A stretch of 64,000 nt of DNA. Source: Colwellia sp. Arc7-635. Its GTDB lineage: Bacteria > Pseudomonadota > Gammaproteobacteria > Enterobacterales > Alteromonadaceae. Numbering within the stretch: the stretch's first letter is position 1; the number at the start of each line of letters is the position of its first letter. Below the pieces are notes generated by a model. The model searched no databases. It was not told the DNA's origin and saw nothing but the letters and a program-made list of their open reading frames with translations. Shown one piece after another: positions 40,961 through 42,213 of the stretch. The stretch is taken from contig NZ_CP034660.1 in assembly GCF_003971255.1 (NCBI RefSeq), forward strand, positions 3,038,001 to 3,102,000. The letters run 5' to 3'. The position numbers and the translations under genes are program-made.

Positions 40961-41027
40961 CGCTGCCTCTGCACTTATCCTTACATGCGACTCAACAAAC
41001 TTCACTGAGTACTTTTCATTGCCATAT

Positions 41028-41075
41028 TTTCGCTTAACGTTTCAACGCTTAGCTAAGTGTTATCGTTAAGCGAAA
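41028..41075. other. 48-base long hairpin between convergent genes
   Basis: An outer perfect 12-bp stem TTTCGCTTAACG/CGTTAAGCGAAA (41028-41039 with 41064-41075) encloses an inner 8-bp stem (41044-41051 with 41054-41061, one G-T pair). It lacks a T-run on both strands, so it is an untypical terminator; it could be a processed RNA structure. Confidence 0.6.
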
Positions 41076-41106
41076 CAATGAAGAAATAGCACCGCTCTTT
41101 CAAGTT

Positions 41107-41520
41107 TTAATCAACAATGCCTTCTTGAGTTAACGCTTTGAGTTCAATTAATGCTTGCTCGGCATCTTTCGCGGCAACAAAAACATGATCATGATAAAAA
41201 GCAGCAACAACATTTGCACTGATATTAGCTTTGGTTAATTTAGTAGCAACCGCAGCAGTTAAACCAACGGCATCAAGGCTAGAGTGAACGTTTAAGGTAA
41301 TACATTTAAAAGTCCCTGAGTATGAAATATTAAATTCATCGGCTTTTTCTTTAGTCAATATAACGGTTAGCCCCTCTTTTTCTTGAAAAGTACTGATAGG
41401 CTCTAGCGATAATACTTGTTTAAAGTCATAGGTTTCAAGCGTACTAAAAATATACTCACTCTCTACTAACACAGGTGTCATCGACGCGATTAATTTTGTT
41501 AAGTTTTTTTCGCCATGCAT
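41107..41520 (-). CDS. ACT-domain protein (DUF2241-like)
   Basis: A 137-residue cytoplasmic protein made of two ACT-like halves. ACT domains bind amino acids as allosteric sensors. The N-terminal part LTKLIASMTPVLVESEYIF and the middle EGLTVILTKEKADEF resemble DUF2241/ACT_7 proteins, and the C-terminal half FKCITLNVHSSLDAVGLTAAVATKL and VVAAFYHDHVFVAAKDAEQAL is a recognisable ACT fold. The ligand is unknown. It lies 52 bases downstream of the SMR exporter gene on the same strand with no terminator between, so it may be in the transcript controlled by the guanidine-II riboswitch. Confidence 0.8.
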   Translation of the reverse strand: MHGEKNLTKLIASMTPVLVESEYIFSTLETYDFKQVLSLEPISTFQEKEGLTVILTKEKADEFNISYSGTFKCITLNVHSSLDAVGLTAAVATKLTKANISANVVAAFYHDHVFVAAKDAEQALIELKALTQEGIVD

Positions 41521-41572
41521 AATTTTTTCCTTAGCTTATTAATTTAATGGTTATATTAGTTTATTAATTGTA

Positions 41573-41887
41573 TTAGTTAGATACTTTCAAACCGACGACA
41601 CCGATAAAGATCAAGCAAAAGCAAAGTAACTGCTGCGTTGAAAGTGGCTGTTCAAAAAAGTAATGGTTTATGATTGAAATTGAAGACGCACCGACAGCCA
41701 GCCAAACTAGATAGGCATGGGCAACAGGAATGTCTTTTAATGCTATCGAAAACAGCACTAAGCTTAAAGCCATTGAGAAAATGGCAAAGACAACATAAGG
41801 GATATTTGTAAAAGATTCAGATTTTTGAATACCAACTAACCAGCCAGCTTCTAAAATTCCTGCGATAAATAAGATGAACCAAGACAT
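41573..41887 (-). CDS. gdx: SMR-family exporter, probable guanidinium exporter (Gdx/SugE type)
   Basis: A 104-residue small multidrug resistance protein with four membrane helices. The essential membrane glutamate is E13 in IAGILEAGWLVG, matching the SugE/Gdx N-terminus, and AHAYLVWLAVGASSISI is the helix-3 packing motif. SMR proteins work as antiparallel dimers exchanging substrate for protons. Sequence alone would leave Gdx (guanidinium) versus drug exporter open, but a guanidine-II riboswitch directly upstream makes guanidinium the likely substrate. The ATG is preceded by AGAG seven bases upstream, within the riboswitch-controlled segment. An ACT-domain gene follows. Confidence 0.88.
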   Translation of the reverse strand: MSWFILFIAGILEAGWLVGIQKSESFTNIPYVVFAIFSMALSLVLFSIALKDIPVAHAYLVWLAVGASSISIINHYFFEQPLSTQQLLCFCLIFIGVVGLKVSN

Positions 41888-41894
41888 GTGTACA

Positions 41895-41952
41895 CTCTAT
41901 TAAATATAGGGGTCGTCCCCTTAAGAAAATAGAGCGGTGAGGTCGTCCTCAC
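41895..41952 (-). promoter_or_regulatory. Guanidine-II (mini-ykkC) riboswitch
   Basis: On the minus strand two hairpins carry the diagnostic ACGA tetraloops: P1 GTGAGG-ACGA-CCTCAC (41952-41937) and P2 AGGGG-ACGA-CCCCT (41921-41908), separated by 15 bases. Each loop would bind one guanidinium ion and the two loops kiss. The linker holds CTCTATT (41934-41928), perfectly complementary to AATAGAG (41901-41895), which contains the ribosome-binding AGAG of the exporter gene. This suggests translational control: ligand binding frees the ribosome site. Confidence 0.92.
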
Positions 41953-42213
41953 ATCGATACAGATTTAGCCGTTAGTACTTTAGCAAATAAAATAAAAAAA
42001 GTGAAACAACAATTTAAACGACATATTATCGTACAGACTTATGAATAATTTAGAAATAACAGGTAATTTTAATCTATAAACTTGTCATCTTCGTCACCAT
42101 ACTCTCTTATCGCCCTCCACTATTCATCATAAGACAAGGCTCAAAACTTAAGAGACAAAAGCCAACAAAGTGGTCATTCCCACTTAGCATCACATTCAAC
42201 ATGATATGAATAC

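What the first reader, a model, noticed from the sequence alone, without database searches (positions are those of the whole stretch)
41107..41952. Guanidine-II riboswitch with visible anti-Shine-Dalgarno switch
Two ACGA-loop hairpins 15 bases apart are diagnostic of mini-ykkC. The linker CTCTATT is perfectly complementary to AATAGAG containing the exporter's ribosome-binding site, giving a concrete on/off model. The downstream gene is a Gdx-like SMR exporter, consistent with known guanidine biology.
Basis: partly seen in the sequence, partly recalled or inferred. Interest (0 to 1): 0.7.

Follow-up and report, generated by a model that had tools for sequence, protein, structure and literature searches.

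The report
Guanidine-II riboswitch controlling exporter–ACT operon
A short, well-known type of RNA switch that senses guanidine sits in front of an exporter gene and most likely unblocks its translation when guanidine builds up; the switch is ordinary, but the exporter belongs to an unusually divergent branch that is often paired with a second, amino-acid-sensor-like gene of unknown role.

Summary
On the minus strand, 41954-41908 is a guanidine-II (mini-ykkC) aptamer: Rfam RF01068, 46.3 bits against a gathering score of 32. Its linker is complementary to the exporter's ribosome-binding region (9 bp, of which CUCUAUU/AAUAGAG is the perfect core). This pairing is more than chance. Across 57 relatives, cognate linker/leader pairs beat re-dealt pairs in 5000 of 5000 trials. 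In the window-type subset, positions outside the anchor covary (84 of 108 paired; 69.5 ± 3.1 when re-dealt). The on/off model is not new: the literature proposes it, and anti-SD mutants of the Pseudomonas aeruginosa switch are locked ON.

The exporter is not a typical Gdx. It lies in a long-branched clade (100/100 support) that keeps E13, W16, S42, Y59 and W62 but changes about 20 otherwise near-invariant positions; all 23 members detected in the family lie at a guanidine-II aptamer. And 15 of those 23 are directly followed by a tandem ACT-domain gene, as here (41520-41107). I found no report of this pairing in the held papers. The switch is a new member of a known kind; the SMR–ACT pairing is the part worth following.

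The parts
41908..41954 (-). Guanidine-II (mini-ykkC) aptamer, RF01068
   Evidence: Rfam 46.3 bits, gathering score 32, E 5.1e-6
41937..41952 (-). P1 hairpin, 6 bp, ACGA loop
   Evidence: Sequence and fold
41922..41936 (-). Linker; its first 9 nt (41936-41928, CGCTCTATT) are the anti-SD strand
   Evidence: 9-bp complement to 41901-41893; fold and covariation
41908..41921 (-). P2 hairpin, 5 bp, ACGA loop
   Evidence: Sequence and fold
41893..41901 (-). SD strand AATAGAGTG; GAG is 7 nt before the ATG
   Evidence: pairs with the linker in the predicted OFF state
41573..41887 (-). SMR exporter, 104 aa, divergent Gdx-like clade
   Evidence: Pfam Multi_Drug_Res 63 bits; nearest solved structure Gdx-Clo; tree and diagnostic residues
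41107..41520 (-). ACT_3 + ACT_7 protein, 137 aa, 52 nt after the exporter, own SD AAGGA (41532-41528)
   Evidence: Pfam 76.8 and 48 bits; VC0802 (1zvp) family; follows the SMR in relatives
41023..41080 (.). Inverted repeat downstream of the ACT gene; possible transcript end
   Evidence: 17-nt arms, 88% complementary; function inferred

Best explanation
It is a guanidine-II riboswitch acting as a translational ON switch for a two-gene operon (SMR exporter, then ACT protein). Without guanidinium, linker nucleotides 41936-41928 pair with the ribosome-binding region 41901-41893, forming a 9-bp helix that encloses P2 and hides the SD. When guanidinium binds the two ACGA loops, P1 and P2 form a loop-loop kiss. 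That pulls the linker out of the helix, frees the SD, and the exporter is translated and removes guanidinium. Shown here: the aptamer, the complementary strands, their covariation, the gene order and its conservation. Inferred: ligand binding, the kissing state and the ON direction (all from studies of the class), guanidinium as the exported substrate, and co-transcription of the ACT gene.
For: Rfam match well above the cut-off; the only aptamer in the genome. The fold has P1 + linker:SD helix + P2 at -27.2 kcal/mol, z -4.7; keeping the linker strand unpaired costs 9 kcal/mol, and the SD core goes from fully paired to partly open. Cognate linker/SD duplexes average -6.6 kcal/mol against -5.15 ± 0.26 re-dealt, 0 of 5000. 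Outer pairs switch among U-A, A-U, U-G and C-G, with 84 of 108 paired against 69.5 ± 3.1 re-dealt, 0 of 10000. Literature: putative anti-SD in the linker (PMC9094411); in P. aeruginosa, anti-SD mutants C7/C8/C32/C34 are constitutively ON and ligand-pocket mutants OFF in a RelE initiation assay (PMC9561414). The exporter keeps E13, W16, S42, Y59 and W62, the substrate-site residues of Gdx-Clo (PMC7695847).
Against: No binding or expression data for this RNA. Energy models cannot score the kissing state. About half of the relatives in the same family lack clear linker:SD complementarity, so the platform is not universal. Re-dealing controls do not remove relatedness fully. The exporter falls below the SugE equivalog cut-off (74 against 126 bits).
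Confidence: 0.88

Rival explanations
1. The hairpins regulate transcription (attenuation) rather than translation.
For: P1 and P2, each followed by U-rich sequence, match a crude terminator pattern.
Against: Stems have only 5-6 bp and the tails are interrupted (CGCUCUAUUU, AUAUUUAAUA); the covariation is with the ribosome-binding region; the class is described as exclusively translational (PMC9561414).
Confidence: 0.06
2. The aptamer has drifted to another guanidino compound, matching the divergent exporter.
For: Its exporter clade is far from typical Gdx (branch 1.61, 100/100), with changed residues near the site (A60L, T63L, G64A).
Against: The loops are canonical ACGA with flanking G and C, as in aptamers in front of typical gdx genes; the guanidinium-contact residues of the exporter are kept.
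Confidence: 0.06
3. The ACT gene is an unrelated neighbour with no part in guanidinium biology (a rival to including it in the module, not to the riboswitch itself).
For: The ACT family is widespread (127 of 299 family genomes) and mostly sits elsewhere. It is absent after the SMR gene in 8 readable riboswitch loci of other families of the class, and 8 of 23 members of the divergent clade lack it.
Against: It directly follows the SMR in 19 genomes, plus one with an SMR remnant. These are in at least two SMR lineages of the family, and a further SMR-ACT pair occurs in Cellulophaga.
Confidence: 0.45

Closest known systems
Guanidine-II riboswitch (mini-ykkC, RF01068), E. coli sugE and P. aeruginosa examples
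   Same: Two ACGR-loop hairpins, anti-SD in the linker, translational control of an SMR gene
   Different: The P. aeruginosa model also uses 5'-flank nucleotides in its P0 helix (PMC9561414); here the linker alone gives 9 bp, with only minor pairing predicted to the 5' flank
Gdx / SugE guanidinium exporters (Gdx-Clo, 6wk5)
   Same: SMR fold; E13, W16, S42, Y59 and W62 kept; riboswitch-controlled
   Different: 34% identity; about 20 otherwise near-invariant positions changed, including GXG to AXG in TM3
VC0802 (1zvp) ACT_3/ACT_7 protein; more remotely CASTOR1
   Same: 124 bits to VC0802 over almost the whole length. D111 aligns with CASTOR1 D304, which contacts the guanidinium group of arginine
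   Different: The CASTOR1 match is weak (E 0.015). D111 is invariant in unlinked homologues too, so it does not mark the operon copies

Membership tests
Guanidine-II riboswitch | Two hairpins with ACGR loops at short spacing; score above the Rfam cut-off | tested here: met
   46.3 bits against 32
Guanidine-II riboswitch | Upstream of guanidine-related genes | tested here: met
   SMR gene 20 nt downstream
Guanidine-II riboswitch | SD-sequestering helix with an anti-SD outside the loops | tested here: met
   9-bp helix, covariation
Guanidine-II riboswitch | Binds guanidinium and raises translation | not testable with these tools
   Needs probing and reporters
Gdx subtype of SMR | E13, W16, S42, Y59, W62 | tested here: met
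   All present
Gdx subtype of SMR | NCBIfam SugE equivalog cut-off | tested here: not met
   74.4 bits against 126
Gdx subtype of SMR | TM3 Gly-X-Gly fulcrum | tested here: not met
   A64-V65-G66
Gdx subtype of SMR | Exports guanidinium | not testable with these tools
   Needs a transport assay
Qac subtype (EmrE) | Gly or Ala in place of W16 | tested here: not met
   W16 present
CASTOR1-type arginine sensor | CASTOR chain matched over its length | tested here: not met
   137 aa; only query residues 81-135 match CASTOR1, E 0.015

The most novel reading that the evidence does not exclude
The riboswitch controls a two-part module in which a divergent SMR exporter works with an ACT protein that binds guanidinium or a guanidino compound such as arginine. 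The protein would tune the exporter or its metabolism, making a protein-level sensor behind an RNA-level sensor of the same group.
Probability: 0.15. Interest if true: 0.6.

Novelty: new member of a known kind. Interest (0 to 1): 0.32.

Why it matters
The switch adds comparative support (covariation across species) to a linker anti-SD mechanism that the literature still calls putative for E. coli. The wider lead is the gene pair: a riboswitch-bound SMR branch with a changed core and a conserved ACT partner could reveal a new regulator or substrate in guanidine biology, where the physiological source and handling of guanidine remain open.

Tried and rejected
Terminator reading of P1/P2: weak pattern matches only. 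A MAFFT alignment of leaders (A1) put the SD strand out of register between species, so pair counts were not made on it; registers were anchored on the first five linker bases and only the outer pairs were tested. Use of CASTOR1 D304 as a mark of the operon copies: rejected, because D111 is invariant in all 72 homologues compared. Viral contigs: no relative of the exporter found. Plasmids: only relatives below 60% identity, about 40% in the best rows, several annotated SugE. The original papers on the class (Sherlock 2017, Reiss and Strobel 2017) are not held.

Full report
Observation. The minus strand carries P1 (41952-41937), a 15-nt linker, P2 (41921-41908), 20 nt of leader and the exporter's ATG at 41887. 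Rfam calls it guanidine-II with 46.3 bits (gathering 32), the only RNA-family hit in the window and the only RF01068 hit in the 4.74-Mb genome. The predicted fold is P1 followed by a 9-bp helix between CGCUCUAUU and AAUAGAGUG that encloses P2, at -27.2 kcal/mol, better than all 200 shuffles.

More than chance. RF01068 was found in 4 of 17 genomes of the genus and 72 of 299 of the family. I extracted aptamers with their leaders. For 57 distinct leaders, the duplex energy of linker with its own downstream leader averaged -6.6 kcal/mol; re-dealing linkers among leaders gave -5.15 ± 0.26 and never reached the real value in 5000 trials. In 27 leaders of the window type, I fixed the register with the first five linker bases only and then counted the next four positions: 84 of 108 were paired against 69.5 ± 3.1 re-dealt, 0 of 10000. 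Pair types include U-A, A-U, U-G and C-G, so both sides have changed. These controls do not fully remove relatedness.

Platform diversity. The linker:SD design is not general in the family. By energy model only, other leaders hide the SD with the P2 arm or with sequence 5' of P1. Leaders before 'MFNTVLIANR' carboxylase-like genes and before the 'MNWLLL' SMR group show little linker complementarity. This fits the P0 helix proposed for P. aeruginosa (PMC9561414).

Known mechanism. The linker anti-SD and ON-switch model is published as a proposal (PMC9094411; review PMC12186494). In the RelE assay, mutating anti-SD nucleotides of the P. aeruginosa switch gives constant initiation, while ligand-pocket mutants stay off (PMC9561414). 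The window's switch is therefore a new member, not a new mechanism. Keeping the linker strand unpaired costs 9 kcal/mol in the model and partly opens the SD; the ligand-bound kissing state itself cannot be scored this way.

The exporter. It matches Pfam Multi_Drug_Res, is nearest to Gdx-Clo among solved structures and keeps E13, W16, S42, Y59 and W62, which hold guanidinium or position its glutamate in Gdx-Clo (PMC7695847). Yet it scores 74 bits against a 126-bit SugE cut-off and is 34% identical to Gdx-Clo. A tree places it in a 19-member clade on a 1.61-long branch with 100/100 support. About 20 positions nearly fixed in the other riboswitch-linked SMRs differ there, for example A17L, K21Q, Y22K, G25S, A60L, G69S and G74N, and the TM3 GXG fulcrum is AXG in most members. 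In the family search, 22 proteins at 50% identity or more, plus one at 42% that the tree puts in the clade, all lie at a guanidine-II aptamer (G280 by a long-linker form). The tree lacks Qac and other subtypes, so whether this clade is inside Gdx is open.

The ACT gene. 52 nt after the exporter lies a 137-aa protein with ACT_3 and ACT_7, related to VC0802/1zvp. The ACT family occurs in 127 of 299 family genomes, mostly elsewhere in the genome. It directly follows the SMR in 15 of the 23 divergent-clade loci, and also in four genomes of another genus with an SMR outside that clade (G159, G077, G111, G139). The last three have guanidine-II aptamers with longer linkers that Rfam missed. One more genome keeps aptamer and ACT with the SMR mostly deleted (G161). 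In other families of the class, nine riboswitch loci have an SMR gene; eight of them hold the sequence downstream, and none has the ACT gene. A Cellulophaga contig has an SMR-ACT pair without a detected riboswitch. The SMR tree needs at least five label changes on well-supported branches, so the pairing was gained or lost repeatedly. D111 aligns with CASTOR1 D304, which contacts arginine's guanidinium, but the match is weak and D111 is invariant in unlinked homologues as well. The guanidino-sensor idea is thus only a lead. I found no paper in the held library linking guanidine riboswitches to ACT proteins: the one paper holding both terms cites ACT domains only in its reference list. Subscription papers are mostly not held.

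Verdict. The riboswitch is real and its model is very likely right, and it is ordinary for its class. The exporter clade and its ACT partner are the parts that may be new.

Noticed in passing
L108 (- strand), L282, L283, L284, L288: Guanidine-II aptamers with long linkers (28-50 nt) that RF01068 scores below its cut-off or misses. In L108 the linker holds GTGGCCT...AGGCCAC with GGTTGT/ACAACC, which could form a pseudoknot.
   Followed up: partly
L020, L029, L031, L047, L049, L050; L052, L055: A glyoxalase-family (PF00903) gene follows the riboswitch-controlled SMR gene in two separate SMR groups.
   Followed up: partly
L066 1733-2230: Aptamer and linker:SD strands kept, SMR gene reduced to a remnant, ACT gene still present downstream.
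   Followed up: partly
L023 1950-2650: The ACT gene after the SMR is split by an inserted stretch with stop codons.
   Followed up: no
L030, L035, L039, L058, L061, L065: Guanidine-II aptamers before carboxylase-like genes (MFNTVLIANR) share AAGACGAGT right after P2, which contains a third ACGA.
   Followed up: no
L038, L048: The SMR gene is followed by an exported-looking protein of about 230-250 aa; the L038 copy has no Pfam match.
   Followed up: partly
window 42168-42185 (-): Terminator-like hairpin between the MarR gene (42630-42214) and the riboswitch, suggesting the operon has its own promoter; none was found there by the consensus scan.
   Followed up: partly
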